DNA from: Chondrosia reniformis
Taxonomy: Eukaryota; Porifera; Demospongiae; Chondrillida; Chondrillidae
DNA length: 64,000 nt
Reading direction: 5' to 3'
Assembly: GCA_947172415.1 (NCBI GenBank)
Contig: OX359200.1
Span: 6,326,501 to 6,390,500, forward strand
The position numbers and the translations under genes were made by a program. The notes beneath the pieces were generated by a model, which was given only the letters and a program-made list of their open reading frames with translations, searched no databases and was not told the origin of the DNA. How positions within the stretch are numbered: position 1 is the stretch's first letter; every line of letters begins with the position of its first letter. Positions 4,201-61,500 of the stretch are shown piece by piece.

Positions 4201-6488
4201 CATTCCAGTGATTATTCATTTCTTCATTATAGCCTTTGCACAGGCATGCATAACTTAATTAACTCACTTAGTTTATATGTACAGTATATATATGTATGTG
4301 TGTATAGAATAAGTACATCTTGAACATTGATGGTACTGTGGCTGCTTACCGCATGCCATACCTTCTGGCTGGACACTCCCTCGTATTTAAGCAGGATTCA
4401 CCTTATTATGAGCACTTCTATAAAAAGCTTGTGCCATGGACTCACTACGTTCCCGTAAAGAGGGATATGAGTGATATCCTGGACCAGCTAGAATGGGCCA
4501 AAGAACATGATGAAGAGGTAGGGAATGTCAAGTTATTTACTCTCTCGATTTTACCAATTTAATTCTTCTCCTGATATGATACAGTTCAAATTATATATAA
4601 AAATCTCTGTAAAGTATCCATATATACAATGTACGTATGTACATATCAACACACATGTTTGACTACTTGAACTATTTACTGCTTATATGTACAAACAGTA
4701 AAGTTACATTTGAGATGATATGTACTCATAGGGACATTTTAAGCGTAACTACTTACTGTACATCTTCTCATATTTTTAAATAAATAACCACTTGACAACT
4801 ATGCTATGTACGTATAACAGTTTATCTCCTTTTAACCCTCTTACATTAATGGCCTACTCCTTATTAATTACATGTATTATTATATTAACCATAATACGTA
4901 TATGATATGTACATACTTCGCTGGTACAAATGTCATAGGCTCAGCAGATCACTAAGAATGCTCATCAGTTTGTGATGGATCATTTAATGCCTGAACACAC
5001 CTACTGTTACGTTGCAAGATTACTCAAGGTTTGATTTCAATTTTGGTGAATGCATGCATTTCCATGATTGGTCATACAATGTGACTATAATAAAACTTAT
5101 TGTGCTAAATATGAAAGTGATAAGCAGACCACAAGTTCTGTTTCTCAAGCATCATTGATGGGAATCAAACTCAGGACCACTGATTAAAATCATCAGTTAG
5201 TTCCCTCCTTCTACTAGGCTACAATGGTTATTATTCAATCTAATTAGTACTCACTCTCTTAATGGTGATTTAATTTATGTCAAACAAACTGACTCTCGGT
5301 AAACATTCCATGCAATCGGAAAATATTGATTGTCAAATAGTTTAAGATTTTACATTACCGTGGAATGTAATTGTTACTCGGTTATTAAAAGAACAATCTA
5401 AGTCAGTTGTGGTCTAACATTTATCACGTTTTTGTATGCCTTCCTGCATGCTACGAATGAATAATCTTAAACATCACATTCCAAAAAGTATGGTTATCCT
5501 ATGAAGCTAAGGAAACTTAAAGAGAATAGACTAAACAATTTTCTTAGACTGGATGATTCAGGGAAAACCATAGGGTTTTGGATGAAGATAAAGTTAGACT
5601 TCTTTTCTTCCTTTTCCAATTGTACAAATGTATTATAATTATATAGTACATACTGTATGTACTGTAACCGAATGTTCTCTATATACAATTATTTTGTTTT
5701 TATAACAGCTGTCTACACTTCTATGACAACTGTATACTTCTATGACAACTGTCTAGACAATTGTCTACTTCTATGACACTGGTATACTTCTGTGACAATG
5801 ATATACTTCTGTGACAATGATATACTTCTATGACAACTGTCTAGACAATTGTCTACTTCTATGACACTGGTATACTTCTGTGACAATGATATACTTCTAT
5901 GACAACTGTCTACACTTCTATGACAACTGTCTACTTCTATGACAACTGTCTACACTTCTATGGCAACTGTATACTTCTATGGCAACTGTCTACACTTCCA
6001 TGACAACTGTATACTTCTACGACCACTTTATACTACAATGTTTACGTATTTTATATATTTTGTATTATTATACTGCTAATAGTTAAGGGTAATACGTTTT
6101 GTTTCTATGACAACTATATACTTCAACTGTATTGCATGTAGGAGTATGCTAAAAGACAAGTAGGCAGACCAGTGAAACATCAACACATGACACAGCTAAA
6201 TCAACCAAATAAGAGTTGTCGCCCTTGCAAGGTATGTCAATCACTATAGTGACTCATGGGGCCAGCTTGGCCTATTGCTTGCTTATTATTAATGTATTTG
6301 TGATGGAAGTTTGAAGATGCATAATGTTAAATAGAAACAAGACTTAGAGACCTATTACACGTGTACCATCAGCTTATGTACTTATATAAAGGTATCTAGA
6401 GATGCAGGAATGGCTTCATCTTTCTTCATGTATATATTTTTAGGAGATGCGGCTTCACCTAAAAAGTGGTCAGCATGATGAGTTGTGA
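1201..6488 (+). CDS. POGLUT2/3: Protein O-glucosyltransferase, POGLUT2/3 (KDELC) type, 3' part
   Basis: This is an ER-lumen glycosyltransferase of the CAP10 fold. Relatives add O-glucose to EGF repeats of secreted and Notch-type proteins. Seven exons are seen: 1201-1278, 2680-2867, 3305-3539, 4308-4517, 4939-5028, 6142-6231 and 6444-6488. They give 311 residues, and all phases join cleanly. Diagnostic stretches are [51 protein letters not shown] and [10 protein letters not shown], which match human POGLUT2/3 in order. The last exon encodes a C-terminal QHDEL followed by TGA, an ER-retrieval signal as expected for this subfamily. The N-terminus is outside the window. A possible poly(A) signal AATAAA lies near 6658. 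The intron before the sixth exon contains a tandem repeat and a SINE-like copy. The choice between POGLUT2 and POGLUT3 cannot be made here. Confidence 0.93.
1574..1912. repeat. Fold-back element with arms of about 70 bp
   Basis: The left arm (about 1574-1650) and right arm (about 1843-1912) are inverted copies sharing TAGTGACTC, CTTGGCCTTGTGCT and GTGTCACTTTAATAAAT. The arms are separated by about 190 bp. A partial third copy in the right-arm orientation lies at 6243-6285. It is located in a POGLUT intron. It looks like a non-autonomous DNA element or a pair of repeats in opposite orientation. Confidence 0.6.
2505..2620. repeat. AT-rich imperfect tandem repeat, unit about 30 bp
   Basis: About four imperfect copies of a unit containing TATGCTATATTTTATACATTA lie immediately upstream of the exon at 2680. 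They are intronic. Confidence 0.55.
3936..4200 (-). repeat. Possible repeat fragment with decayed coding look
   Basis: The minus strand is open for 86 codons inside a POGLUT intron. A part of it (near 4070-4110, containing CTGATGATTTTT and CTTGGAT) resembles 42500-42545 in an importin-4 intron. This suggests a dispersed element rather than a gene. No family was recognised. Confidence 0.3.
5117..5228 (-). repeat. tRNA-derived SINE-like repeat, copy 2
   Basis: On the minus strand a tRNA-like 5' end (CATTGTAGCCTAGTAGAAGG, A-box-like) is followed by a B-box-like GAGTTTGATTCCC. It then has the family tail ACTTGTGGTCTGCTTATC, close to ACTTGTGGTTTGATTATC in other copies. It lies in a POGLUT intron. 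Confidence 0.55.
5704..6020. repeat. Intronic tandem repeat, unit about 20 bp
   Basis: About 15 degenerate copies of a unit like ACTTCTATGACAACTGTCT lie in the POGLUT intron that precedes the exon at 6142. Higher-order duplication is visible (GTCTAGACAATTGTCTAC recurs). Confidence 0.85.
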
Positions 6489-10346: not shown

Positions 10347-26353
<16,007 letters not shown>

Positions 26354-28623: not shown

Positions 28624-29877
28624 ATGGGGTCAAAAATTCCGGAAGCTGACAGTTGTGAAATGAAGGCAGTAGTTAAGTCAATTGTACCAAAATCAAACAT
28701 AAAGTGTCCTTTCAATATACCTGGTCAGGTGGTTGCCCTTGGTTACGAAGCCACACCTAAAGAACTCTCAGAGTCGTCAACAAGATTTATTTGTCTCCAG
28801 GCTGAAGTTAAAACGGAGGAGAGCAGTGTACCAGTTGAGTTTGTGGTAGACACACTGTCAGAATCTGCTACCTTAACTGAAGAATATTTTAACATGTGCA
28901 AAAAGACATTTATTGAGAACCGAACTATTAAGTGTCCAAATAACTTGGAATATACAGGGAGTATATATGCAGGGAAAATTCAGCTTGGAAATCGCTGTTT
29001 TGAAATTGAAGTAAGTAACAAAGCCTAATTTTCCATAGAGCATGATTTTTCATTTCTATATTATTCTATGTAGTACACATTGTATATAGAAATAATTTTC
29101 AATTCATTTAAGCTTATATGACCTTTGGAAGGTGAAATATGAAAGAAGTATGTAGTCGAACCTCTCTTAACAGACTCCCTGAATTGCAGAAACCCCCTTA
29201 TTATATATGCGCACTATTTGTAGCCCCATGCAGCTAACCTGCTATTACATTAAATACATATAGGCTCCTCTGAATTGAGGATCCCTCCATAATAAGGAAT
29301 TTTCTTTAGATCCATGATACAAAGGTTTCACTGTATATTGATTTGTTATTAAATGGATAGTGTTTTAAAATATTATCTCATTTTATCTGAACATCTCTTC
29401 CAATTTCCTGCAGAAAGTGGTACCAATTTAATATCGGCAATTTGTACATAATTTTATTTACTATCATTCTTGCCAATTGAAACTAAATTTGATTGGCTAC
29501 TTTCTATAATAATTTATCGATTGGACAATATATAAATATAGTTTTAAAATGGGAAATATTGTTACTTCAGCCTTTGTACTGGTAATGTGAATAAACTGAG
29601 CCCTTTGAATACAGTAGACAGATCCTATATACGTACGTACTATGTGATCATTACTACCTATTCATTAGATCTGTATATAGTGTCTACATTCTTCAGTGAT
29701 ATAAACACCAAGCCATAGATTGTGTTATATAATCTCTCTTGTGCTGATTGGAATGTTTGCTTGTCCATTTAGGTTGCCCTGGATACGGTCAATTCACTTC
29801 CTGCTAAATTCTTCTCATACTTTGATCACGTTATTACAGGAGGCAAACACTATTGGATACTGCCACCAGGAAAGTAG
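28624..29877 (+). CDS. Unrecognised protein, two coding exons
   Basis: I do not recognise the family. Exon 1 (28624-29010) starts MGSKIPEADS after a CTATAG acceptor, and ends at a clean GAA|GTAAGT donor. Exon 2 (29773-29877) follows TTTAG and encodes VALDTVNSLPAKFF through HYWILPPGK, then TAG. The join is phase 0 and gives 163 residues with no signal peptide or membrane segment. The motif IKCP occurs twice (SNIKCPFNIPG and RTIKCPNNLEY). Two points support exon 2 as real: the good acceptor, and an almost identical copy of the same exon at 33008 in the duplicated unit. An upstream in-frame ATG at 28549 is less likely because a splice acceptor separates it. The intron holds a Tigger-like element. 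Confidence 0.6.
29155..29333. mobile_element. Possible Tigger/pogo-like MITE, about 180 bp
   Basis: The left end GTCGAACCTCTCTTAACAG and right end (reverse: CAGTGAAACCTTTG) resemble each other and Tigger termini, and TA flanks both ends. It lies in the intron of the unrecognised gene. Confidence 0.45.
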
Positions 29878-32550
29878 ATGGACCACTCAAGAAAGCATTT
29901 TGTCATTCAATCACATATCTGAAATCTTTCTATGTGTACCTGTATGTGTGTGTTATGTATTGTGTTACTGTATGGTAACTGACTGTGGTTTATTTTTATA
30001 TCTTTTGTATTGAATCTATAGAAGTATCTTGAGAACCTCAATAACACAGCAGTGCTGTGATTATAAATTAATTATTTGTTATAACTAAACCAGATTGTTA
30101 AATAATAAAATTGACTTAATTTGGCAGACTTTTAGAAAATGCTTACTGCTGGGAAGGTAAAAGAATGTAAATGTCTACCTTTATATATTGTATCTGTAAC
30201 TGTATATAATATGTATGTCCATTACCATTATTGTATAAAAATTAACTATACACGTAGCTATATTAAGTGAGTTCCTATGCAAGTGTATTAATTTTGTAGT
30301 AGTATATCACGATATTAACGATATATGCGTATATCGATAGTAATCAAATTGCATGAATGTTAACTGGATATGTGCTTAACTATATCTACTGTCGGCACCA
30401 GACAAGATGATCATGATTAACTGTATCTTTTAAACTTCATATATATCTTGATTCTCTCTACACTCATTGATTATTTGTTAGTATAGAAAAAAAATGTCAA
30501 ACAATATGTTGATAACAAAAAGAAAAAGTAATTGTTTTGATACTCTAGTAAAAGCTTATCATTTTGAAACACGTTTTGAAATATTACATTACCCAAATTT
30601 CAAGCACTTCAGTGTAAACATCTTCATGACGATTGCCCTCTGCTGAACACCACCTTACTGTAATGTTATCACTGGTAGTGTTTATCTGTCTATGAAACCA
30701 GCCGTATCTCTCACAGGAGTGTGAGGAAGATGATATACAGCCACGCCCATCCCACAGAGGATCCTCCCAAACTACTCTATTTTTCCAATCAGTCACAAAG
30801 CCAGTTTCACAGTAAAAGTGTTCACCAACAAATGAAGGCACATAGGACCTGTCATTGGGATTTGATCTGTCCCTGGGACACCGTTGTCTAGCATGATGTA
30901 AATTATTATGTAAAGTCTCACCAGGTCCAACAACATAAGTCCAAAGATGGTTATAAGAATTACCGTATGTGATTGATATACCATCTGCATAAAGTTCACT
31001 GGATGATCTGTCGGGTGAATAGTAAAATGCTTGTGGTGCTCCAAACTGATATCCCTTTGCATAACCACACACATGGGTATAAGAAGTATCTACAGGGAAC
31101 TCAACTGCAGTACAACCACGCGAGACAGTCCTGCCACATGCCTTCTGTCCAGTGCTATTGTTTGTTACCATTCTGAGACCAAAGGGACATTGATCACTTT
31201 CACTCATATTGAGATAAGCTATCCTTTTACCACATTTACTTCATAACTTGAGTTAGGATGATCAGCAGGACACAAAATCATTCTTTGAGTTTCTTCAATT
31301 TTACTTATCTTGTTTTGCCATTGTACTCTTTCCTCGTGCAACTTTTCAGCAATTCTCTCCATTATAGTATTGGTGATGTTACTGTTTAGCTTATTCAGCT
31401 CTTCTTCATTTAATGTGGTATCTCCTGATAGTCCAGTAGGTCCTGGAGGACCAGATAAACCTGGATTGCCTACTGTTCCCTGTGGTCCTGGTAACCCCTG
31501 TATACCTTGTGAACCACGAAGTCCTCGAGGGCCTGGTGGCCCTTCCGATCCTTCTGGTCCTTCTGGACCATGTGGACCAGGAGGACCACTCACGTCTAGT
31601 ACCCCTGGTCCACCAACAGGCCCACGCTGTCCTTGTCTTCCTTGTGGTCCTTGAGGACCTGGCACTCCTTGCTCCCCTTTCTCCCCAGGCCCACCTTTAG
31701 GTCCAACTGATCCCTTAGGGCCTGGAGTACCAAGAATATCTACTGCCAACTGCAACTTGCCAGAAGGATTAGAGAAACATGTTCTGTTGTCTTGAGGACT
31801 TTGAGCAGTCACTGACAGTGAAAGAGTGACAATTATCAGTGGCAGAGCTAACATACTGAATGATCAAGGATCCAGACGTATATACTTAACTAGAAAATTT
31901 CTGACTTATATATTCTAAAACCTCTGTCGTATATATAGACTCCATGCAGACTACAAACTGAAAGAAGCTTCCCTCAATTCAGAGTTCTAGTAATTAGTTT
32001 AGTTTACATTTAGAGTATTATGTCTATACAGTGCAAAGTTGTATACATGAAGGAAATATTATAGCTTAACCAATTACAGTTGTATGTTCTTAACTAAGTA
32101 AAGTAAAAAACAATGTACTAATCTTTCAGTTTACTGCAGCTGTGCATGTAAACACGTTCTATATTGTACGTATACATAGAGTGCAAATGTTATCCATCCA
32201 TGCATCCACACATGTTCAGCTATGTCTCCTATACAGAAGGTATATATACAGTATACGTCAACATACTGAGTGATCTAGGATCTATTGTCATCTACCTGAC
32301 TGGCAGTATTACTGAGTTGTGGAGATTCAAAAAGTTTGACTTGTATTTATATTTGAAGCAGCCAGAAAGTGCGAGATAGACCACTCACGTGTTCACCTCT
32401 AACCCTCATTATGCCATATGTGGAGAAAATTAATAGATAAAATACAGTATCTTTACTCTGATAATTACGTACATTTGAAACTATACAAACTTTGCAACAC
32501 TGTATACCATATTTAGAATGTGCTGAACATGTGGATATACCTACGTATAT
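29603..32550. repeat. Segmental tandem duplication, unit A
   Basis: This unit matches unit B (about 32853-35375) along its length. It contains the last exon of the unrecognised gene, a spacer, the frameshifted collagen-like copy, and its upstream DNA. A roughly 390-bp insertion at about 31874-32262 is absent from unit B. Confidence 0.85.
30584..31854 (-). pseudogene. Collagen-like gene, copy A, frameshifted
   Basis: This is a paralogue of the intact gene at 33786-35084. It keeps a signal peptide (start at the second [16 protein letters not shown]), a Gly-X-Y region, the coiled linker and the Cys-rich C-terminal domain. In the linker near 31230-31245, ten bases present in copy B are missing. 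Copy B has two ATTTAC repeats spaced by AGGA, and copy A retains one, a typical slippage deletion. This puts the C-terminal domain (30584-31207) out of frame with the collagen part (31219-31854). The first ATG of copy B is CTG here. A roughly 390-bp insertion separates the start from the TATA box. It is most likely a recent pseudogene. A sequencing error is possible but would not explain the insertion. Confidence 0.7.
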
Positions 32551-33007
32551 TACTACAAAGTGAAAGCTACAAAATGTTCTCACTCCAGGATAACCACAAT
32601 CAAGTTAGCTAAATATTAAATATTGCAAATTATAGTAACTGCATTCATTGAGGGGTAACATATACGGTGTCCTGTGTTGTGCATGAAACATGCTGATTGA
32701 AATATCGCTTGCAAGAGCTTGTGAAATAAAAGATCACTGATAACTTGCAATAACTTGCTGAATAGGCCGGGTTATTTTCTGCATGTTGGCTATTGTGCTT
32801 CAAGAGCTAGGACCTCGAAAACAATAAACAAAATTTTGCTTCCACTATTTTCAGTAGACTGTTCCTACGTATATGTATGTGATCATTACTACCTATTCAT
32901 TAGATCTGAATATAGTGTCTACATTCTTCAGTGATATAAACACCAAGCCATAGATTGTGTTATATAATCTCTCTTGTGCTGATTGGAATGTTTGCTTGTA
33001 CATTTAG

Positions 33008-33112
33008 GTTGCCTTGGATACGGTCAATTCACTTCCTGCTAAATTCTTCTCATACTTTGATCACGTTATTACAGGAGGCAAACACTATTGGATACTGCCA
33101 CTGGGAAAGTAG
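33008..33112 (+). pseudogene. Orphan copy of the last exon of the unrecognised gene
   Basis: After a TTTAG acceptor, 34 codons (VALDTVNSLPAKFF through HYWILPLGK) and TAG repeat exon 2 of the gene at 28624, with one visible amino acid change. No upstream exon exists in unit B. It is therefore a by-product of the duplication, unless it is used as an alternative terminal exon by long-range splicing. Confidence 0.65.
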
Positions 33113-33785
33113 ATGGACCACTCAAGAAAGCATTTTGTCATTCAATCACATATCTGAAATCTTTCTATGTGTACCTGTATGTGTGTGTTATGTATTGTGT
33201 TACTGTATGGTAACTGACTGTAGTTTATTTTTATATCTTTTGTATTGAACCTATAGAAGTATTTTGAGAACCTCAATAACGCAGCAGTGCTGTGATTATA
33301 AATTAATTATTTGCTATAACTAAACCAGATTGTTAAATAATAAAATTGACTTAATTTGGCAGACTTTTAGAAAATGCTTGCCGCTGGGAAGATAAAAGAA
33401 TGTAAATGTCAACCACCATTATTGTATGCTAAATTAACCATACCCGTACGGAGCTATATTAAGTGAGTTCGTATGCAAGTGTATAAATTTGTAGTATATC
33501 GGGATATTAACAATATATATTATATCGATGGTAATCAAATTGCATGAATGTTAACTGGATATATGTGCTTAACTGTCTACTGTTGCAAGACAATTGCAAG
33601 ATGATCATGATTAACTGTATTTTTTAAACTTCATAATATTATATATCTTTAATCTCTCTACACTCATTGATTATTGTTAGTATAGGAAAAAATGTCAAAC
33701 AATATTATATTGATCACAAAAAGAAAAAAGGAATTGTTAATGTATTGTAGCAAAAGCTTATCATTTTGAAACATGTTTTGAAATA

Positions 33786-35084
33786 CTACATGACCCAAAT
33801 TTCAAGCACTTCAGTGAAAACATCTTCATATCGATTGCTTTCTGCTGAACACCACCTTACTGTAATGTTATCACTGGTAGTGCTTATCTGTCTATGAAAC
33901 CAGCCGTATCTCTCACAGGAGTGTGAGGAAGATGATATACAGCCACGCCCATCCCACAGAGGGTCCTCCCAAATTACTCTATATTGCCTACGAGACACAA
34001 AGCCAGCCTCACAGTAAAAGTGTTCACCAACAAATGAAGGCACATAGGACCTGTCATTGGGATTTGATCTGTCCCTGGGACACCCATATCTATCAGTACT
34101 ATAAATCTCACTAAGTCCAACGACATAAGTCCAAAGATGGTTATAAGTGTTACCATATGTGATTGATATACCATCAGCATAAAGTTCACTGGATGATCTG
34201 CCAGGTGAATAGAAAAATCCTACTGGTGATCCAAACTGATATCCTCTTACATAACCACACACATGGGTATAAGAAGTATCTACAGGGAACTCAACTGCAG
34301 TACAACCACGCGAGACAGTCTTGCCACATGCCTTCTGTCCAGTGCTACTGTTTGTTACCATTCTGAGACCAAAGGGACATTGATCACTTTCACTCATATT
34401 GAGATAAGCTATCCTTTTACCACATTTACAGGAATTTACTTCATAACTTGAATTATCAGCTAAATATGGGTAATCACGACATAAAAGTATTCTTTGAGTT
34501 TCTTCAATTTTACTTATTTTGTTTTGCCATTGTACCCTTTCCTCGTACAACGTTTCAGCAATTTTCTCCATTATAGTATTGGTGATGTTACTGTTTAGCT
34601 TATTCAGCTCTTCTTCATTTAATGTAGTATCTCCTGGTGGTCCAGTAGGTCCTGGAGGACCAGATAAACCTGGATTGCCTACTATTCCTTGTGGTCCCGG
34701 TGGCCCTTGTATACCTTGTGGACCACGAGGTCCTCGAGGGCCTGGTGGCCCTTCCAATCCTTCTGGTCCTTCTGGACCATGTGGACCATGAGGGCCGCTC
34801 ACACCTGGTACCCCTGGTCCACCAACAGGCCCACGCTGTCCTTGTCTTCCTTGTGGTCCTTGAGGACCTGGCACTCCTTGCTCCCCTTTCTCCCCAGACC
34901 CACCTTTAGGTCCAACTGATCCCTTAGGGCCTGGAGCACCAAGAACATCTACTGCCAGTTGCAACTTGCCAGAAGGATTAGAGAAACATGTTCTGTTGTC
35001 TTGAGGACTTTGAGCAGTCACTGACAGTGAAAGAGTGACAATTATCAGTGGCAGAGCTAACATACTGAATGATCTAGGATCCAT
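33786..35084 (-). CDS. Short-chain collagen-like secreted protein, copy B (intact)
   Basis: This is a secreted collagen-like protein of 432 residues in one exon. The signal peptide covers about 1-25 ([17 protein letters not shown]). Residues 49-153 form 35 uninterrupted Gly-X-Y triplets, predicted to trimerise. A helical linker of about 50 residues ([20 protein letters not shown]...) carries an N-glycosylation site. The C-terminal domain is about 220 residues and Cys-rich, with [30 protein letters not shown] and ITVRWCS motifs. This C-terminal domain is not fibrillar COLF1 or collagen IV NC1 as I know them. Its role is likely matrix binding or recognition (inference). A TATA box lies 61 bp upstream of the ATG. 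Confidence 0.88.
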
Positions 35085-35144
35085 TGTTATATTATCTACC
35101 TACTGGCAGTATTACTGAGTTGTGGAGATTCAAAGTTTGACTTG

Positions 35145-35801: not shown

Positions 35802-38800
35802 ATGGCGAACCTGGAAGCAATCCTGAATAATTTACTTGTTCCAGACAATGCTGTTATCCAGCAGGTAAGTTGAAGTAATATAAGTAAGTGAAGCATCTGC
35901 ATTATGTTATAACCATCCTTATAGGCTACCCAGGAACTGAAGGCCATCTACAAGAACCCCGGTGTTGTCCCTCCGCTCTGTCAGTGCTTAGTAACCTCAG
36001 CAAGTCCTCAGGTAATATATTGTTGGCCTAATCGGCTTTGATTAGCGCGAAACGGGAGTAGATTACCGCACATCGCATCAGCCTTTCCGGCTATAGACCT
36101 CTAGGCAGGTCATGACGTGATTAATAGACATTAACATTCTCTTAACAAAAAAAACAAAGAAGGAATCTGTAGTGGAAGACCATGTGTTAAATTATATTTT
36201 AAATGAGCTAAATCGTGAAAAAATATTGGAAATTCCTTGTTCTGGTCTGTGATACCATATACATAGATCATCTACGTATACTATATAGTATAGGTAATCT
36301 ATGGTGATACATAAGTGTGTGTGTTCAGAGGTAATATGGTGGTTGTAATGCAATGTAGGTTCGCCAATATGCCGCCATCTTGTTGAGGAGAAGGTTGATC
36401 AAGCTGTGGAAGACACTGAATGATGTGGAAAAGGAGAGGTTAGCGATGCCTTGATAGACATGAGGTTGAGTGATATATGTATGAAAAATCTAAGATACCA
36501 TTTTCCTACATGCTATATGCCTATTCTGTAAAAGAGCCTATAGGGAAACTAAACCTGAAGAGAGCTTTGGATGAAGATACAGGAGTCTTTTCTTCCTTCT
36601 TTTCCCTTCTTTCATCTTCTTCTCCACTGGGTCAGACAGGGAATTCCACCCTTCATCAGTGATCCTGGGAGTCCTTTGTCTTTTTCTTTATCTTGATCTT
36701 CTGTGAATGTCTTCTGATTAATTGTCACTTTTTGTGCACAGTATAGTGTACATTACTAACAAATTTATACATATTTATATGACCATGTTACTGTTGGATC
36801 ACATAATACTTCAACATGTGTACAATGGTATTCTGGAAACCTTTAATCACTAATTTACATCACAATCAATTAATTAAATCCTACAATGTGATCATTTCAA
36901 AACATGAAAGTTTTCAAGATCTGACTTAATTTTAACAGGAAAATACCCTTCAACATACTGTAGCTAGTCTACCGGGATGGAGAGACCTGAGAATATTGCA
37001 AATTTGTTAAGTTGTGGGAAACATCATTAGTAGTATACCAAGTTATCATAATATTAAGTCTAAACTGTAATATGTACGTAATTACTTCTTGAGCAATCCT
37101 GGGAGTTTGATGAGCAGGGTAAATCCAGAATCTAATGAGTCGGCATGTAATCAATTATTAATAAATTATTTTTGATGTATGTATATATGTATTAATTTAA
37201 TGATTACTATTTTCCATCTACAGTATCAAAGAACATGTCTTGACAGCTCTTGATCGAGAGATGGAGTAAGTTTTAAAATCTTGCAATGGAGTGACCTCTT
37301 AACTACGTATATATCATATTATGTGATTTCTGTTACCTAGGAAACCAGTAAAGAGATCAGTGGCGCACTTGGTATGGTATGCAATAGGTCATTGACTATT
37401 TCATATACAAATGTATTTATCTCTTAATGATGCAACTCCAGTATAATCAATAATGCATGATAATGGTGATTTATTTGGGGAAGTTATGCATGGACAGATG
37501 CAACTACAGTATAATCAATATAATCATTGAGTTACACATTTACCAAATTTATATACTGTACTTAATAAGTGCAAATATACGTATGTAGACCAATTTACCA
37601 TCCACAGTTTAACCACTGTTGTACCCCACCATTGACCAATTAGGTTGGTTTGGTCTGGTTGCTCCTGACAACATAATGAGATTCAGTAAGGTCGTAAATT
37701 TGGCTTGAATTTGTAAAATATTAGTTGTTTATCAGAAGGCCAAGTGTCCTCAACAAGCATATCCCCAGTGTCCTCTACAAGCATATCCCCAGTGTCCTCA
37801 ACAAGCATATCCCCAGTGTCCTCTACAAGCATATCCCCAGTGTCCTCTACAGGCATATCCCCAGTGTCCTCTACAAGCATATCCCCAGTGTCCTCTACAG
37901 GCATATCCCCAGTGTCCTCTACAGGCATATCCCCAGTGTCCTCTACAGGCATATCCCCAGTGTCCTCTACAAGCATATCCCCAGTGTCCTCTACAAGCAT
38001 ATCCCCAGTGTCCTCTACAAGCATATCCCCAGTGTCCTCTACAAGCGTATTCCCAGTGTCCTCTACAGGCATATCCCCAGTGTCCTCTACAAGCGTATTC
38101 CCAGGGTCCTATATTTAGTGGAATTGAATTGTAGAGTAATCGGTTTCTCAATTAGTAATTGCTTATATGTACACTCATAATAGAATTATTAATTACATTC
38201 TGAGTTGAAAGTGTGTTTGAAAGTGATTTGCCTTTGCACTGGGTTAGTGTAATTAACTTCCTTTTCACTTTCACAAATTGTACAAGTTTTAAATACAGTA
38301 CTGTATATATGTATATGCATTATATTCCTATTGAGGAACATCCTATGATATTTGTCTTCTTAAAGCTTGTTTACTGATTGAAATTTGTAATTCAAATGAT
38401 CAAATCATTATTAATTACATTCTGAGTTATAAAAGTGAGCATTTAGTTTAAAAAAGTGGTGATTTGCCTTAAAAATGATACTTCATAAAAATTCCTATAG
38501 TTTTTGTTAAAAAGTAACTTCTATATATAATGTACATGGTGATTTAAAAATAATTTAAAAGTGATAGTATATCAGATGTGCATCACCTTAAAGCCAGTAC
38601 ACACCCATGAATGCCATCTTCTCAAAGGTCGGTTCAGGAAGTGGTGTCATGGCAACCATACTGAATCCTGACTTCCTGAGTATATTGTATGTCCTCACGA
38701 AACTGGTGACATCAAACCTGTTATCAATGTAGACCTGTTCCTTCCCATAAGACTTTCTATTCAGGATAGCACTGTATTCAATCTCTCCACTACTGCCATC

Positions 38801-41800
38801 CTTTCTGAAAGTGACATCAATTATGTACTTTTGCAAGCTGACTTGATTGTACCCTTTGGTGCTGAGTTCCTTGTAGTTGAGGCCTTTGAGGAGGAAGGTC
38901 CACTCGTTCTTCTTGTAGATTGTGTAGACAAACTGAGTCTTGTCCCCCCCTAGTCTGTATCTCATTACTATAGGGTAATACCCCTCTGTCTGACGGGCTT
39001 CTCTTTCTGCTTCCCATTTTGATTCTGGAGTTTCAAAGTTAATCTTGATATCGGAATCTGTCTTTGCAAGGACTAGTATCATTTTAACTTCATCGTTGAC
39101 AGTGTAAGGAGCTAATGTGATTGGTTGATAGTTGCTAAACTCCTTCACTTTATTTTCAGCCTCTTCAATAGATAGGTCAATGAGAGTAATGTAGTTCATG
39201 ATATTTTCCACTCCGACATATGTGAACACCACTGAAAATCTTTGAGCTCCATTCCACATGTAAGTATTGACATTTGTGGGCACAAACCCACTTGTTTCCT
39301 TCTTCTCAAGAGCTTTAGGAAGCCTCTTAATGTTTAGGAATGCTGTCATCTTGCTCAGCTCCTCGGGGAGGGGGAGGGGTCCCGTTACTTGAGGGACTGT
39401 TGGGGGAGTAGTGGGTGTGGTGGAGGGCGTGGTAGCAGTGGTGGGTGGAGTAGCAGGTTCCTCTGTAACTGGTTCGGGTGTAGTGGCATTTTTACCTGAG
39501 GAGAATAAGAATAAGCTTTAAAGACAACTCTTATTAGCTTCTGCTATAAAAACTAGTGTAAGCATTATTACTGTAACAGAGTTCTACTGTTAGTTTATTA
39601 TGTGTGTTTAATATTAATTGTAGTAAAGTCTGAAATACTGTTGTATATTAACAATGCCATGGTTTACTATATAAACTCACTTGATCCTACATAGAGAAGC
39701 AGATTTGGAGTAGTCTTTTTAGGAGTGGTTGAGAAACTGCTAAAATCAATCACATCCTTTGTAGCTGCAGAGAGCAGTTTCTCCTTCACTTCGTCAGGAG
39801 ACAGTTTTGGGTTCTCCTCAAGAATGAGAGCTACAGCACCAGACACAAGTGGAGCAGCCATTGAGGTCCCTGTCTTACTCACAAGTGAGTCGTCGCTCTG
39901 GTGAGAAGCTGATCTGACAGATACTGCTGGAGCCATGATGTCCACACATGACCCATAATTTGTTCCAGTGGACGTGTACCAGTAGAGTCCATCTTGGCTG
40001 GAAGTCCCACCTACTGTGATGGCCTCAGGAGCGGAGGCCGGACTGTAGTTACAAGCGTCCTTTTTATAATTCCCTGCAGCTGCTACAGTCACAACTCCTG
40101 ATTGGTAGGCTGCCTTTATATAGTGGTTGATGGAAGGGGACTTTGGTGCCACTATGGAGAGTGACATGACAGTGGGACGGCCGCTCTTCTGGGCTTGGTC
40201 GATGACTTGGTCAATTGCTGTGAGGAGACCAGAAACACTTCCTCTCTTGTTGCAGTCAAGCACTCTTATGCTGTAGAGGTTGGCTTGTGAGGCAGTCCCT
40301 GTAATTTTCCCACCGGCTAGACCAGCTACATGTGTCCCGTGTCCCTGGCAGTCTTCACCGGTAGACCCGTAGTGATCATATCCGCCATATTTAGCTCTGT
40401 CTTCAAACACTTCATGGCTATATCTGATTCCAGAATCTAATATATAAATATCAACCCCTTTGCCTGTAAGTGGACTGTCAAATATGTTGTCCAGAGGAAG
40501 ATTGCGCTGGTCTATCCGATCAGTATGCCATCCTAATTCAATGGGAAATTGAGCAGCTGTAATCTCTCCATCAGGTTCAATGGACTCCACCTCCTCAAGC
40601 TCCATAATCTTGACCAGTTCCTCAGGACTGAGTTCTGCTGTGTAACCACGGCTGTGACTTTTTACCATTCTCCCGGCTGACCTTCCCATCCCTCTGGCAC
40701 CGGTTATTGTGTCATTTGGAGCTAAAATGGTATCGAAATCCAATCTGTGGCCTTTCATCGGCATGGAGCTGTCCTTCATGGTGACTATGTAACGATTTAT
40801 TTGGTCCTGATTGTTCCCTCTCTCTCCTCCTCCTCTCCCTCTCCCTCCTTCTCTCCCTAACCCTGGATTCACAGGTCTTCCAGCTGCCATTAAGAATAGC
40901 ATTGCTGTTGCTAATATTGCAAGTTTCTTCATAAACATTTTTGAATCTTCTGAATCTTGTTTGGCTGATTTATAATTCTCTTTTTGGAGTCTGTTTCTTG
41001 TTATTTTTTTTATTTCTGCTCTTCCTTTATATACTTGTTGGTGTAATCATATTCATTGATATTACATAATTTCTCTCCTTATACAGGATATGATAACTTA
41101 TCTTTTTGTTAGATATCCTTATTTGGGAACTTTAATTTCTGTAAATTACTTATATGCAGCCGATAATGGCTACTGTAATTATTATTAATTTAGATTAAAT
41201 TCTTTAAAAGGTGTGTTTCTAAATATTGCAGTTGCACAATTTTGAGGTCAGTGTGGCTGGATCATGACAACGGAATGACTTCTTAGAAGATATTGATTGA
41301 AGATATTTTATGTACTATGTCATTTGTAACCTTTACAGTATAGACGTCCCCATTTCAGGATGCTTCAATCTAAGCCAGAAAATAGAGAAAGTTAGCTAGC
41401 TACAGAGTGTGTGTGTTTGGCAAGTGTAATTCTATCCTGACCTGGGAGGTGATTCTACAATATGTTAGCAAAAACGAAGAAAAATGATTGCACTTGGAGT
41501 GTATACTACGTATATGAAAATCTAACTCACCATTTTCTTACATGCTATGCCTACTGTAACTCTGTAAAAGCCTATAGGGAACTAAACCTGGAGAGAGCTT
41601 TGGATGAAGATACAGGAGTCTTTTCTTTTCTTTCTTTCTTCTTCTCCACTGGGCCAGACTGCTCTGTATGTTTAGAATACTTGGATGGGTGCAATATTCT
41701 CTTTTGGGGAGTAGGAAGCTCTGTCTATATATTAAATAATATTTATAATTCACATCAATATTTGATGGACAATTCCACTATTGTGTAGTAAAGTGCCAAA

Positions 41801-44800
41801 TCTCTTACATGCGTACAACATTAGATACATGTTCATTGTAATAAAGGTCGAATGATGTTAATCTCTGATATAATGTATCATGTATCATTCAATTTCTAGT
41901 CACATACAATCATATTTAAGCATAAATACTAGTATATGCACAACTAACGTATGCTAGTAAGTTAAGGTTGAGTTTTTCTCTTTCAGAATTAATGAGAGCT
42001 TTGAGTTTTGAAATATTAGAATACTTCCATGTTAACAATGGCAGCTGGGCCATGTGCATATTTAAATGTCATATTTGGTAAACCTTGTGGTAATGTGTAG
42101 CTCTATTTTGTAGTTTTTTAAGGTGGTTTTTGTTTAGGGAAGGTTATAGGAAACTTCCTTATAGGGCGCATGTGACTTCAGTTAAGAGGAAGATATTCTC
42201 TTTCATCTCTTATTTATATGTATTCCCATCTTTATTAATCCTTCCCTACTCCCAATGTATTGTAGATATGCCTTACAGTAGTTTGAAGATCATGTTTGAT
42301 TATATGTGCACCTTTCTATGGACTCCGTACATATGCAGATGGTACAGCTGCAAATGGATAGATGTGGTGATTATTGTAATGCTGATTAATGAAATCTGAT
42401 GGATGATTAGAGTGACAGCTGTAACCAAGATTTTGGTCATACAAATAAAAATGTTAAATGTTAGAAAAGAAGATTCCTGTATCAGAAGGAGGACCAAACA
42501 GCTATCTATGGTCCTTTGATGATTTTTATCATCTTGGATTTCCATTGATAATGCAATCCTATATCCATAATCTGACACACCATTTTCCCATTACATGTTA
42601 CGTACATCTACTTTAGAGTAAAGGCCTATAGGGAACTAAACCTTTGAATGAAGATACGTGCAAGAGTTTTCTCCTATTTCTCTTCTTCTCCACTGGGCCA
42701 GACAGCTGTTTCTGGGAATTCCACCCTTCATCAGTGACCCTGAGAATCCTTGTCTTCTTGTCGATCTTTTGTGAATCCTCCTCCTTCATGCAGGGTCCAG
42801 TGGAACTGTAGTTGTAGCTAGTCAGCATTTGTATTCATAAAAACCTTGTTTACATACATTGATTGAAATAAACAATTGTGTAATTGTCAATTAAGCTTTC
42901 TTAATTAAAAATTAGGAATGTTTAAATTAACCAGTGAAATGAAGAAAGCCTAAAGTATTCTGAAGGTGCTCATAATATTATCATCCTTGTACAGTTAAGT
43001 TGACTTATTTAGCATGAAGAGAACTTTCTTCTCTTTATTTGGAGCATTCATACAGTTATCATAATTATTTAATCAATGATAAAATATTTCAAGCATTTTC
43101 CCAGTATCACCAGGTAAATAAGGTGGTGTCACTATACTTCCATATAAGGGCATACTACTTCTATGTTTTGTGTCAACACACCTAACCACATAATTCATTC
43201 TGAAGATAAAGTAGAAGTTACGCTGGCATCAAAATCGGCACACCTTTGATGGACTAATGGCTTGTAATGTCATAAAGGGAGGGTTTGTCTTGTAATCAAC
43301 ACAGATACCATTCTGTTTGCTAACAGAGGATTAAATTAAGGATTTAGATCTTTCATTCAGGAACCTACATTAAAACATGTTGAGTCTGGAAAAGTCTGTT
43401 TCATCAATCATCTTAAAATGTCTGCAGAGAGTGGTCTAGACTTGGGAGGATACATATGTGCAATACAAGCATATGGTTTATAAGTCTTCCATTTTTAATA
43501 GCAATTTTGACTTTAAGACTAACAAAGCTTTTTAAATCTTATTATGCAATGTACATAAATATTATTATATAAGCAGATTTGGTAACAAAGGCCATTTTGC
43601 TTAAAATGCAATTTTTAACATCTACTAGGTACAAAAGTGTTTGCGTGTTCCTGATTTATCTGTGTGTACTTATCATGATCTCTCTCTAAGTTTAGGAGGT
43701 TGGGAGGATATTATTGGAGTCTCAGGGGCCATGACCTCTGAAGTGTTTAAAAACTGACCTTTAGTTTTAGTGTCATCCTTGAGATGTGCTGTTGTACTGA
43801 ATCACTTTGTTGATGTATTGTGAGTCAAGTGATGGAGTGAATCCTTATTTTGTTACTATTATTGGTAACCATTATCTGTTGTGATGGCCTAGAGGAAGAG
43901 GATGTTATTTTATTTGCATTAAACAATTAATGTCATCATGTCTCATCCTCCCGCCCTTGAAAGATTCCATATAATTAATCAGTTATCATTGAGTTATTTA
44001 ATGAATCCTTGAAATGATATGTGGTAACAATTGTGATTAATGTTAGCTTCCATGCTTTCACCTTTTGGAGCTCACCTTTACACCATCCCCTCCCACCTTA
44101 CAGTAGCCCCTTCCACCTTACAGTAGCCCCTTCCATCTTACAGTAGCCCCTCCCACCTTACAGTAGCCCCTCCCACCTTACAGTAGCCCCTCCCATCTTA
44201 CAGTAGCCCCTCCCATCTTACAGTAGCCCCTCCCACCTTACAGTAGCCCCTCCCACCTTCTAGCATCTAATTCATCCTCTAAAACCTTATTTTCTCCCTG
44301 GGTAGGTATCTGTTATAGCTAGTCAGGAGCTTCCTGCTGGAAAATGGAACAAGTTATACCAGTACATTGAACAGAACTGCCTAAATCCTGATCCTAATAA
44401 GAGAGAGGTATACATACGTAGAACTTTCTGTATGGGTCCTGATTACTTGTGATTATCACTTGCATGCACCAATGGGGTTAATGCTCCTCAACTTTGAATG
44501 TTCATTTTTGTAGGTTGCTATGCTGTTGCTATGCAGTCTGCTAGAGTCCAATCCAGAACCTGTAAGCAACCAAAGCCACACCCTTTCCTACCTCTCACCC
44601 CTCCCATTCCTCCTCCTCCCCTTCTCCTCCCCCTCCCCTCCTTATCCTCCCCCTCCCTTCCTTCTCCCCTCCCCCTCACCTCCTCCTCCCCTTCTCCTCC
44701 CCCTCCCCTTCTCCTCCCCCTCCCCTCCTTATCCTCCTCCCTCATTATCCATGTTTGTAGTTCCAAGCGCAATTTAAGAATCTGATGATAATATTCAACA

Positions 44801-58556: not shown

Positions 58557-61500
58557 TTATGATTCAAAGTTTCTTACTCCCGTTTCCTCTCGAATCCAAT
58601 CTAGGAAATAGTATACACTAATGTGTTGCTCAAACTGGACACGTCTGGTGCATTCTGAAAAATGTCCATTCAGTAAACCAGTAACAAACCAGTACTGCTC
58701 GGCGCTGTTGTATGACACAAGAGCTGTTCCTCCTACCCGAGCACAAGGGGTTCGTGTCGGAGCTATGCACACAGATCTGCTGGCGGTACTCAAGGCATTG
58801 CACTGTGAGCCTCTTGTTAAAATATTAGTTTCCCTACGGAGAACCCTACCACCTTCGATGCTTGGTAGGAACATTGTCCAATGTGCAGTTGAAGGTGGTT
58901 TGGAAACATCTCTATCACTCGGGAGACAGGCTGCCCGAAATGGAGTGCCTTCACTGGCCAGATTGACCTTTGCTATGCGAACTAGTGCCACCACATCTTC
59001 TCCCTCAGAAGAACTGCTATAATTCTGATGACATACAATCTCCAACACTTGAGAAGAGAAAGCGGGATAGGACCAACAGTTGGACTGCGCTCCAGTGCTA
59101 CCAGGATTCTGGTTGGTAGTAAATGGATCAACAAAAACAGCAGAAAGATCTCTGAAATCCTTCCCACATACACAGCTCCCTAGTGTCAAAACCCACTCAT
59201 GATTTATCAAAACTCCACCACAGAATAGTTTACTGTCAGTTTGACTGCAGAATGAGATTGTCCACGGTGCAGTATCGTAATTCTGCATAAATATTTCCCG
59301 AGGTACTCCTTGAATTGTAGGTAGATTACGTGGTCGGTATGGCAACAGACCACATGTGACACAACCTCCAATCCTGTCACTTGAAGAGTACCCATCCTCA
59401 CAGGCACATTGATAGTTTTCATCAAAAGGTAAGCATGTATGATCACAATCAAAGCCTTTATCTTCACAGTGATCTAATGAAACACATAAGAACCATGATG
59501 GTATGAACAGTGGTTAAAGCTATTTTATGACACTTCACTACTTATTACTACTAATAGTATACTGTAAGTATGTATCTGCTAAGCTGTTTGAAGATCTTGG
59601 ACTACACTAGTATTAAAAGTATTATTCTCGCATCAAGAAGATAAAAACAACAAAGAAAAATTATTTAATCCAATTTACAGTATATGCTTAATAAATCAAT
59701 TGAAACCGGAATTGACCTGCTATATATATATAGACCCAACCACAAATAATAGACCCAACAGATAGATCACATGACAGTCATAGGATCAATAGATATGTCA
59801 CATGATATCATTAAGACTATTATACATGTATAACTCAAGCATGTAAGTGCATGTATGTGATGAGGGATACTACTCCCTTTACCTTGGACTAAGACTCGAA
59901 TACTCTTGTCAAGCGATCCAAATATGTTCTCCACTGAACACCTATACACACCATCGTCTCTCTTCCTCACATTTGTAACTAACAAAATGGCTGATCCTTC
60001 TCCTGTTGCCAAAACAGTTGGTGAGCCAAGCTACAATATACACATAGAACAATCTACTACATCAGATTTAGATTAAAATTTAGAGAAAGATGGAGTAATG
60101 AAAAATGAAAATGATTCAGATATTTCAATTGGTTTGCAGCCATACTATTCATTACATTTGTAAATATTCAAACTTTACTCTTTCCATCGCTACTTTAATT
60201 CTGGATCATTTGGTCTAATGCCATACATATGTCATCATAAAGCAAGGAGATTGGCATAATGGAACTAGTATATGAACAGTCTCTCTAGGACGGTCAATTG
60301 CTTAAAATGACCGCTTCAAGTCTCAAAATTATTTATACTTTTAAACCCTAGCAATTCAGTCACTTACGTCATACAGCAAGAACATTCTCCTAGGAGACCA
60401 GATTAGGAAGGTCCCATGGTAACTATATATATATTTATATGAATGCTATAACATTGCAGACATTTGTACGTACTTTTTTCCATGTAATTGAAGGGGGGGG
60501 ACTACCGCTGCCAAAGCAACCAATTGTAAAATTGAGTCCAATGATCGTCCTTAGCGGACCTTCTACTGGGTTCAATGAAATACTACTTGGTCCAGCTAAA
60601 AAAGAAATTAGGTTTACAGGTTTTGTAATGTATACAGTGTATAGTAATAAGACAGTAAACACAACTCATACATAAAACTGTAAGTTCTTAATGTGTTGAT
60701 TCACACTGCCTAAAAGACTCTCTTACGTACTTTAAATGATCAAATTATTTAACTTGTGCTAATATTGTATGCTATTATAAACTAGTGCATGCTAATATAA
60801 ACTAGTACATTCTAATATAAACTAGTGCATGCTAATATAAACTAGTGCATGAAAAATCTAAGATACCATTTTCCTACATGCTATGCCTATTCTGTAAAAG
60901 AGTCTATAGGGGAACTAAACCTGAAGGAGCTTTGGATGAAGATACAGGCATGTTAGTAATCTGACTCACGGTGAACTGTAAGAGAAAAGTTTTGCCACAC
61001 AGATCCCCTTAGGTTGGTTGCTAAGCAACTGTACATTCCTTCATCAGGATATGTGACAGGATTAAACTGAATTGAAAAAAGATAAGGGATTGTTAAGTTG
61101 ATTTTAAAGTTGTAAATTACTTTGTGTGGCTTTGGATTTACTCCACCCAATCAGGTCTCCTAAGGAGTGCAATGGGTTTTACAATAGGTAGAACAGAGGT
61201 CCACTTAATCTGGTAAATCTAGAATCACATGCTGAGAGATTAAACTAGCCATTAGTTGCTAAGAAGACATGCTTAAATTACATAACCACCCTAGACCTGA
61301 AGAGTATTTAAGCTAAGAATACTTACATCAACTGTCGATGTTGTCAGTCTTGTGGAGTCTTCCGGCCTACCCAGTTTTCTTATTCTACCGCCTGGAATAT
61401 TAAACTTGGTACCATTTCTGTACCATTGAAATTCCACCTCTTCAAGTGCAATAGGATGGTTTTGAATGCTGCAAGTTAAGCCCAGCCTACGACGAATTCC

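What the first reader, a model, noticed from the sequence alone, without database searches (positions are those of the whole stretch)
42695..42740. Dispersed repeat R1 carries a hammerhead-ribozyme-like motif
On the minus strand all hammerhead parts occur in order: GGGTCA, CTGATGA, hairpin, GAA, palindrome ACAGCTGT, C, TGGCCC. The outer six bases pair completely with one G-U, and the U-H site is GUC. A self-complementary short stem III is what Penelope-like elements and animal retrozymes use (known family trait), where dimers are the active form. R1 is short, has no coding capacity and has seven copies here, so it would fit a non-autonomous retrozyme-like element. The main weakness is the A-A pair beside stem II.
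Basis: partly seen in the sequence, partly recalled or inferred. Interest (0 to 1): 0.78.

Follow-up and report, generated by a model that had tools for sequence, protein, structure and literature searches.

The report
Sponge repeat with hammerhead-like cleavage site
A short, very abundant jumping repeat in what appears to be the kidney sponge genome carries a slightly damaged hammerhead ribozyme, and many shortened copies begin at the very base where that ribozyme would cut, which suggests that its RNA was sometimes cut there before being copied back into DNA.

Summary
The motif is real. On the minus strand of 42695-42740 all hammerhead core bases, a 6-bp stem I and a palindromic stem III occur in order; the flaw is an A·A at 10.1/11.1. 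Contig lengths identify the genome as Chondrosia reniformis. Rfam does not hit R1, but a model of this genome's own hammerheads does (E 0.0012 in 64 kb). R1 is not a retrozyme: true tandem retrozymes of about 352-362 nt exist here and share only about 14 nt with it. R1 is a dispersed retroposon with fixed 3' end, variable 5' ends and, in the longest copies, a TATA box; the commonest start lies about 30 nt after it. New evidence: truncated copies pile up at the predicted scissile bond. Of 39 independent foreign-flank junctions within -1..+4, 23 start exactly at U1.1; equal-design counts gave 43 raw (about 27 cleaned) there against 5 at a control site. Against: A·A in 57 of 60 scored copies, no sign of selection, a second start cluster at +5..+7, some starts upstream. 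Best reading: an attenuated hammerhead that cut some R1 RNAs in the germ line. Cleavage itself is untested.

The parts
42567..42779 (-). R1 copy (subfamily A) holding the reported motif; starts at about -79 relative to the predicted cut
   Evidence: (85% to subfamily A consensus)
42695..42740 (-). Hammerhead-like motif (type I topology)
   Evidence: (21.0 bits, E 0.0012)
42735..42740 (-). Stem I 5' arm GGGTCA
42728..42734 (-). Core C3-A9 CTGATGA
42713..42727 (-). A10.1, GGG-loop7-CCC (stem II), A11.1; the A·A lies at the base of stem II
   Evidence: A·A in 57 of 60 scored copies
42702..42712 (-). GAA (12-14) plus palindromic stem III ACAGCTGT (no loop, so a dimer is probably needed to form it)
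42700..42701 (-). Predicted scissile bond: C17 (42701) / U1.1 (42700); truncated copies elsewhere in the genome start at the U1.1 equivalent
42695..42700 (-). Stem I 3' arm TGGCCC
23007..23219 (-). R1 copy; hammerhead-like motif at 23125-23170 (24.6 bits)
36481..36708 (-). R1 copy, subfamily B (94.5%); the stretch GAAAC...CTGTC is partly deleted
41514..41663 (-). R1 copy truncated within about 7 nt of the predicted cut
60849..60948 (-). R1 copy, subfamily B, 3' part only
16543..16632 (+). R1 copy, 3' part only
5577..5613 (-). Weak 37-nt R1 fragment (purine tract; uncertain)
   Evidence: E 5e-4

Best explanation
R1 is a non-coding, non-autonomous retroposon of the sponge. Shown from sequence: over a thousand dispersed copies, a precise 3' end (TTTTTCAT in subfamily B), variable 5' ends, and in the longest copies a TATA box about 30 nt upstream of the commonest 5' end. 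Inferred: it is transcribed by Pol II and copied by a LINE- or PLE-type reverse transcriptase supplied in trans. Its RNA contains a minimal type I hammerhead whose stem II begins with an A·A instead of a pair. Inferred from genome evidence: the motif retains, or retained when the copies were made, weak self-cleavage (probably as dimers, because stem III is a loopless palindrome), so that some R1 RNAs were cut between C17 and U1.1. Reverse transcription of the 3' fragment then gave ribozyme-less copies whose first base is U1.1; uncut RNAs gave copies starting near the transcription start.
For: Motif complete and matched by the genome's own hammerhead model. Pattern sample allowing starts at -1..+4 equally: 156 hits, 1 reversed-control hit; of the 100 rows listed (33 from one array, written once, leaving 68), 39 independent junctions have foreign flanks, starting at -1:5, 0:23, +1:2, +2:3, +3:2, +4:4; by eye two of the 23 are doubtful (C2:1215319 looks like an indel inside an R1 copy, C2:757379 lies in a local cluster). 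Binomial p about 3e-9 against equal use of six positions, taking 23 of 39. Exact-junction counts of the same design: 43 at 0 against 5 at -31; of the 43, eight lie in one C2 cluster, eight more are places that or the eye marks as R1-internal and two are one duplicate, leaving about 27. In an anchor sample (145 copies, 127 independent), 18 of the 65 starts within -70..+30 fall in 0..+7; 0 of 2000 uniform simulations reach that. Both subfamilies (TGGC and TGAC) contribute starts at 0.
Against: A·A at 10.1/11.1 in 57 of 60 scored copies, where PMC3088659 (section 8) calls this the most conserved pair aside from A15.1-U16.1. The subfamily B consensus has a stem I mismatch and its best fold is not a hammerhead, yet B copies also start at 0. 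No sign of selection: the motif differs between A and B at 3 of 46 sites against 21 of 177 elsewhere, p=0.43. The fold of the A motif is no better than shuffles, z 0.11. Starts also cluster at +5..+7 (8 events), which cleavage alone does not explain, and three B copies start at -7, -5 and -4. With other gap costs one A copy (L087) is placed at -5. No Rfam hit. A coarser collapse of flanks leaves only 25 foreign-flank junctions, 9 of them at 0. No RNA or biochemical data.
Confidence: 0.58

Rival explanations
1. The pile-up is a reverse-transcriptase stop at a folded RNA domain (stem I and neighbours), not a cleaved end; the hammerhead likeness is a relic or only a structure.
For: A second sub-peak at +5..+7 lies at the 3' edge of stem I, where a stop would be expected; the best fold of the A motif forms stems I and II; some starts lie at -7..-4.
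Against: In the pattern sample the peak is at 0, the far side of stem I, not at its entry (that pattern cannot see +5..+7). The fold is no more stable than shuffles (A z 0.11, B z 0.61), and B does not fold so yet starts at 0.
Confidence: 0.25
2. Chance likeness: R1 is an ordinary SINE-like repeat whose sequence happens to contain hammerhead consensus bases.
For: A·A mismatch, no Rfam hit, no extra conservation, B consensus lacks a full stem I.
Against: Genome-specific model E 0.0012 and 1e-4 within 64 kb; the genome is rich in real hammerheads with the same GAAACAGCTGTCTG; chance does not explain junctions at the predicted bond.
Confidence: 0.12
3. R1 is a true non-LTR retrozyme: tandem units processed by hammerheads into circles.
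For: Same ribozyme type and, in subfamily A, the same palindromic stem III as the genome's retrozymes; two near-identical loci hold two partial R1 copies head to tail (L095, L110).
Against: Smallest same-strand gap 607 nt (A) and 1234 nt (B) among 100 listed places each; promoter-like region, fixed 3' end and 5' truncation instead; only about 14 nt shared with the tandem retrozymes.
Confidence: 0.04

Closest known systems
Minimal type I hammerheads of Penelope-like elements and dispersed in animal genomes (PMC7761336, passages read; Cervera and de la Pena 2014, not held)
   Same: Type I topology, weak stem III, thousands of dispersed non-coding motifs, dimer likely needed
   Different: R1 has A·A at 10.1/11.1, is not shown to be linked to a PLE, and leaves a start-site footprint; [quoted passage not shown]
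Animal non-LTR retrozymes (PMC7229834, parts 1 and 2 of 6 and passages read)
   Same: Non-coding, small, type I hammerhead, no LTR
   Different: Retrozymes are unit-length tandem repeats; R1 is dispersed, 5'-truncated and has a TATA-type promoter. Real retrozymes (about 352-362 nt) coexist in this genome
5'-end ribozymes of R2, RTE and L1Tc retroelements (HDV-like or twister; PMC7761336 passages, partly recalled)
   Same: A self-cleaving motif in the 5' part of a retroelement RNA
   Different: Those are thought to form the element's proper 5' end; in R1 the cut would remove the ribozyme and give short copies
Schistosome SINE-like hammerhead repeats (Sm-alpha; recalled; only search listings seen)
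   Same: Hammerhead inside a SINE-like repeat
   Different: Those hammerheads are canonical and described as satellite-like DNA (recalled)

Membership tests
Type I hammerhead ribozyme | Core bases CUGANGA ... GAA, A15.1-U16.1, U-H cleavage triplet | tested here: met
   (window copy); consensus of 42 copies
Type I hammerhead ribozyme | Stem I pairing | tested here: inconclusive
   6 of 6 pairs in 17 of 36 scored A copies, 4 of 24 scored B copies; the B consensus has one mismatch
Type I hammerhead ribozyme | Pair 10.1-11.1 at the base of stem II | tested here: not met
   A·A in 57 of 60 scored copies
Type I hammerhead ribozyme | Covariance-model score | tested here: inconclusive
   No Rfam hit; genome-specific model E 0.0012
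Type I hammerhead ribozyme | Self-cleavage at C17/U1.1 | not testable with these tools
   Only indirect: 5' junction pile-up
Type I hammerhead ribozyme | Loop I - loop II tertiary contact | not tested
   No three-dimensional RNA tool used
Non-LTR retrozyme | Head-to-tail unit-length arrays, each unit with a hammerhead | tested here: not met
   Smallest same-strand gaps 607 and 1234 nt among 100 listed places of each subfamily; contrast L079 and L080. Sample of listed places, not the whole genome
Non-LTR retrozyme | Circular RNA | not testable with these tools
   No RNA data
Penelope-like element part | Linked RT/GIY-YIG gene or pseudo-LTR | not tested
   Autonomous partner not sought
SINE (tRNA-derived, Pol III) | tRNA-like head | tested here: not met
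   No tRNA in 5 loci (bacterial setting of ARAGORN); no tRNA model at E<=10. TGGCCCAGTGG resembles an A box (consensus recalled)
Retroposon copied from RNA | Fixed 3' end with variable 5' truncation | tested here: met
   45 of 55 B copies end exactly at TTTTTCAT; 5' starts cover the whole range that the query allowed, -153 to +48
Retroposon copied from RNA | Target-site duplications | tested here: inconclusive
   Flank repeat of score >=20 in 5 of 48 copies against 2.5% of mispaired flanks; long repeats in L177 and L194

The most novel reading that the evidence does not exclude
R1 is a retroposon that carries an attenuated hammerhead as a built-in brake: the A·A mismatch tunes cleavage so that uncut RNAs propagate the full element while cut RNAs seed dead, ribozyme-less copies, and the genome keeps a countable record of in vivo hammerhead cleavage.
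Probability: 0.2. Interest if true: 0.76.

Novelty: new variant of a known kind. Interest (0 to 1): 0.57.

Why it matters
[quoted passage not shown] R1 offers a test that needs no RNA: if a ribozyme cuts retroposon RNA, copies should start at the scissile bond. Here an excess does. The same junction count could be made in any genome with a ribozyme-bearing retroposon. If cleavage is shown, the case also bears on how far the 10.1-11.1 pair is needed.

Tried and rejected
Coding origin of R1: the subfamily A consensus is open for 59 codons in one frame and 58 in a reverse frame, and the A/B differences looked at by eye are mostly non-synonymous; dropped. tRNA-derived SINE: not supported. MITE with inverted ends: CCACTGG at the far side of the window copy lies outside the shared repeat. 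Splice acceptor at the site: no AG before position 0. Internal Pol II start at 0: no TATA 30 nt upstream (consensus). Microhomology with an ACATG-like target: R1 also has ATG at -31, where only 5 junctions match against 43 raw at 0. Control at c=-23 gave 43 hits, 13 with letters, of which by eye 2-3 are true truncations and the rest indels. Control at c=-37 gave 36 hits with no letters, so it cannot be split. A comparison of A and B start rates (10 of 74 against 2 of 53 at -2..+3) is only suggestive, p=0.07. A literature search for 10.1/11.1 mutants gave one unrelated paper. A one-mismatch search meant to give new places listed the same 100 exact ones and served only for its count.

Full report
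Organism. The window is G000:C12:6326501-6390500 of a 117,379,552-base assembly in 15 contigs. Total size and the contig lengths seen (10.41, 10.29, 9.42 Mb and others; C12 7.52 Mb) match Table 3 of the Chondrosia reniformis genome note, PMC12181767 (passages read). The species name is an inference from these lengths.

The motif. One search shows every hammerhead part in order on the minus strand of 42740-42695. Numbering the base 3' of the predicted cut (U1.1, 42700) as 0, the core is CTGATGA, stem II GGG/CCC with A·A at its base, GAA, the loopless palindrome ACAGCTGT, C17 and stem I GGGTCA/TGGCCC. No Rfam family reaches its gathering score in the window, and no hammerhead model appears at E<=10 in the 701 bases around it. 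The genome itself has canonical type I hammerheads: 111+107 exact matches to CTGATGAGN{8,16}CGAAACAGCTGTC with no reversed-control match, and 65 RF00163 matches among 73 candidates scored of 11,921, 51 of them over the cut-off. Many lie in tandem at about 352-362 nt (coordinates; two arrays read): these are retrozymes. A model of 15 such hammerheads finds three places below E 0.01 in the window: 4052-4086 (a retrozyme remnant), 23125-23170 and 42694-42740. I gave it 46 of the 183 R1 loci held: 29 of 30 subfamily A loci match at E<=10, 19 of them with 17.5-21.3 bits, and 15 of 16 B loci with 9.6-17.0 bits. The score rests largely on the shared core and the GAAACAGCTGTC stretch, so it does not prove common descent.

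What R1 is. A DNA search gave 2276 candidates, 40 scored. A 20-letter piece of subfamily A has 680 exact copies and 1553 with up to one mismatch; a 21-letter piece of subfamily B has 816. R1 shares about 14 nt of the core with the retrozymes (the longer matches listed there are R1 copies that lie near retrozymes). In B, 45 of 55 copies end exactly at TTTTTCAT, while 5' starts run from upstream of a TATATAAG box (-119) to far inside the element, with 19 of 53 independent starts at -91..-82, about 30 nt after the TATA box. Two copies share about 115-127 nt more upstream. Long target duplications are seen in L177 and L194, but most copies show none above background. This is the anatomy of an RNA-copied retroposon with a TATA-type promoter; Pol II is inferred.

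Junction test. If the hammerhead cuts R1 RNA, reverse transcription of the 3' fragment should give copies that start at U1.1. The anchor sample has 145 copies (L081-L225): 60 of 63 listed C2 places and 30 of 37 listed C1 places of A, and all 55 listed C1 places of B. Of the seven C1 places left out, five had an intact core, which raises the share of truncated copies in that part; two were simply not fetched. They collapse to 127 independent copies. Of 65 starts between -70 and +30, 18 fall in 0..+7, which none of 2000 uniform simulations reached; the best 5-nt window is -1..+3 with 11 (49 of 2000) and the best 3-nt window is +5..+7 with 8 (118 of 2000). No A start lies between -10 and -3 there, though with other gap costs L087 is placed at -5. 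Three B starts lie at -7, -5 and -4. So in this sample the hot spot is not a single base.

A sharper test asked for copies matching R1 from +4 on and differing at -2, -3 and -5, which lets starts at -1..+4 appear equally (156 hits, 100 listed, 33 of them one tandem array). After writing the array once and collapsing similar flanks, 39 independent junctions with foreign flank remained: -1:5, 0:23, +1:2, +2:3, +3:2, +4:4; 12 further clusters had R1-like flanks (indels or rearrangements) and were left out. By eye two of the 23 are doubtful (C2:1215319, C2:757379). A coarser collapse at up to 5 mismatches in 15 leaves 25 foreign-flank junctions, 9 at 0 by strict matching; I hold the finer one to be right because the coarser one merges flanks on different chromosomes that share only an AT-rich target motif. 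Flanks often read TACA|TG or GCAT|TG, so part of the 0 class may truly start at +1. Exact-junction counts of the same design gave 43 at 0 and 5 at -31. Of the 43, eight rows are one C2 cluster (counted once: 36), seven more are places that flags as R1-like flank, one is the indel just named and two are one duplicated flank, so about 27 stand; the 5 control hits could not be cleaned, their letters being withheld. The words behind the and patterns are not equally common (15 of 60 against 5 of 60 C2 copies of A, 29 of 55 against 23 of 55 B copies); for the pair this was not measured. It may lower the contrast by a factor of about two to three, but does not remove it.

What speaks against activity. 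A·A stands at 10.1/11.1 in 57 of 60 scored copies. PMC3088659, section 8 (read), calls this the most conserved pair aside from A15.1-U16.1 and says that U·U is the best tolerated mispair; A·A should therefore be weak. Stem I is fully paired in 17 of 36 scored A copies and 4 of 24 scored B copies, and A and B differ at 3 of 46 motif sites against 21 of 177 elsewhere, p=0.43, so there is no sign of selection for the ribozyme. The motif's fold is no better than shuffles (z 0.11; canonical ones -2.9 and -2.0).

Verdict. The motif is real, and the genome holds a footprint of an RNA end, or a hard stop, at its predicted scissile bond. The best single explanation is weak hammerhead cleavage of R1 RNA, probably through dimers; the main rival is a structural stop of reverse transcriptase. 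By the membership test R1 is not a retrozyme, and not a proven hammerhead, since one defining pair is missing and cleavage is untested; it may still work like one. Searches of the held library for 'hammerhead ribozyme' with 'porifera' found 0 papers, with 'penelope' and 'sponge' 5, with 'sine' and 'retroposon' 7 and with 'retrozyme' 31, 30 of them listed; from titles and abstract starts I saw none that describes this element, but most subscription papers are not held.

Noticed in passing
window 4010-4260 (+), hammerhead remnant 4052-4086: Remnant of a canonical tandem-type retrozyme with most of stem II lost (25.2 bits, E 7e-5; read).
   Followed up: partly
G000:C4:3836500-3840000 (L079), G000:C7:2772500-2775500 (L080): Retrozyme arrays with four or five hammerhead stretches spaced 359-362 nt in a sponge.
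   Followed up: partly
G000:C3:7259507-7260685: Array of a roughly 28-31-nt unit made of the R1 stretch just 3' of the predicted cut (33 rows).
   Followed up: no
G000:C2:756963-757403: Eight R1-like junctions at spacings of 25 nt and more, a second small array of the same stretch.
   Followed up: no
G000:C2:988525-1520310, 2549848-3520724, 7669254-8058023: R1 copies with the same or nearly the same foreign flank repeated over hundreds of kilobases, pointing to duplicated blocks on C2.
   Followed up: no
upstream of subfamily B copies, e.g. L214: TTTTGGCGCCAAAA, a perfect palindrome resembling an E2F site (recalled), lies just before the TATA box of R1.
   Followed up: no
L095 and L110: Two partial R1 5' parts head to tail in near-identical loci.
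   Followed up: no
window 29641-31863 and 32876-35099: Two very similar neighbouring stretches (90-98% in four 300-nt blocks) with collagen-like open frames, apparently a tandem gene duplication.
   Followed up: no
window 14407-14950, 18862-19461, 24017-24630, 37668-38185: Short-unit tandem arrays (8, 30, 32 and 24 nt), some open in several frames.
   Followed up: no
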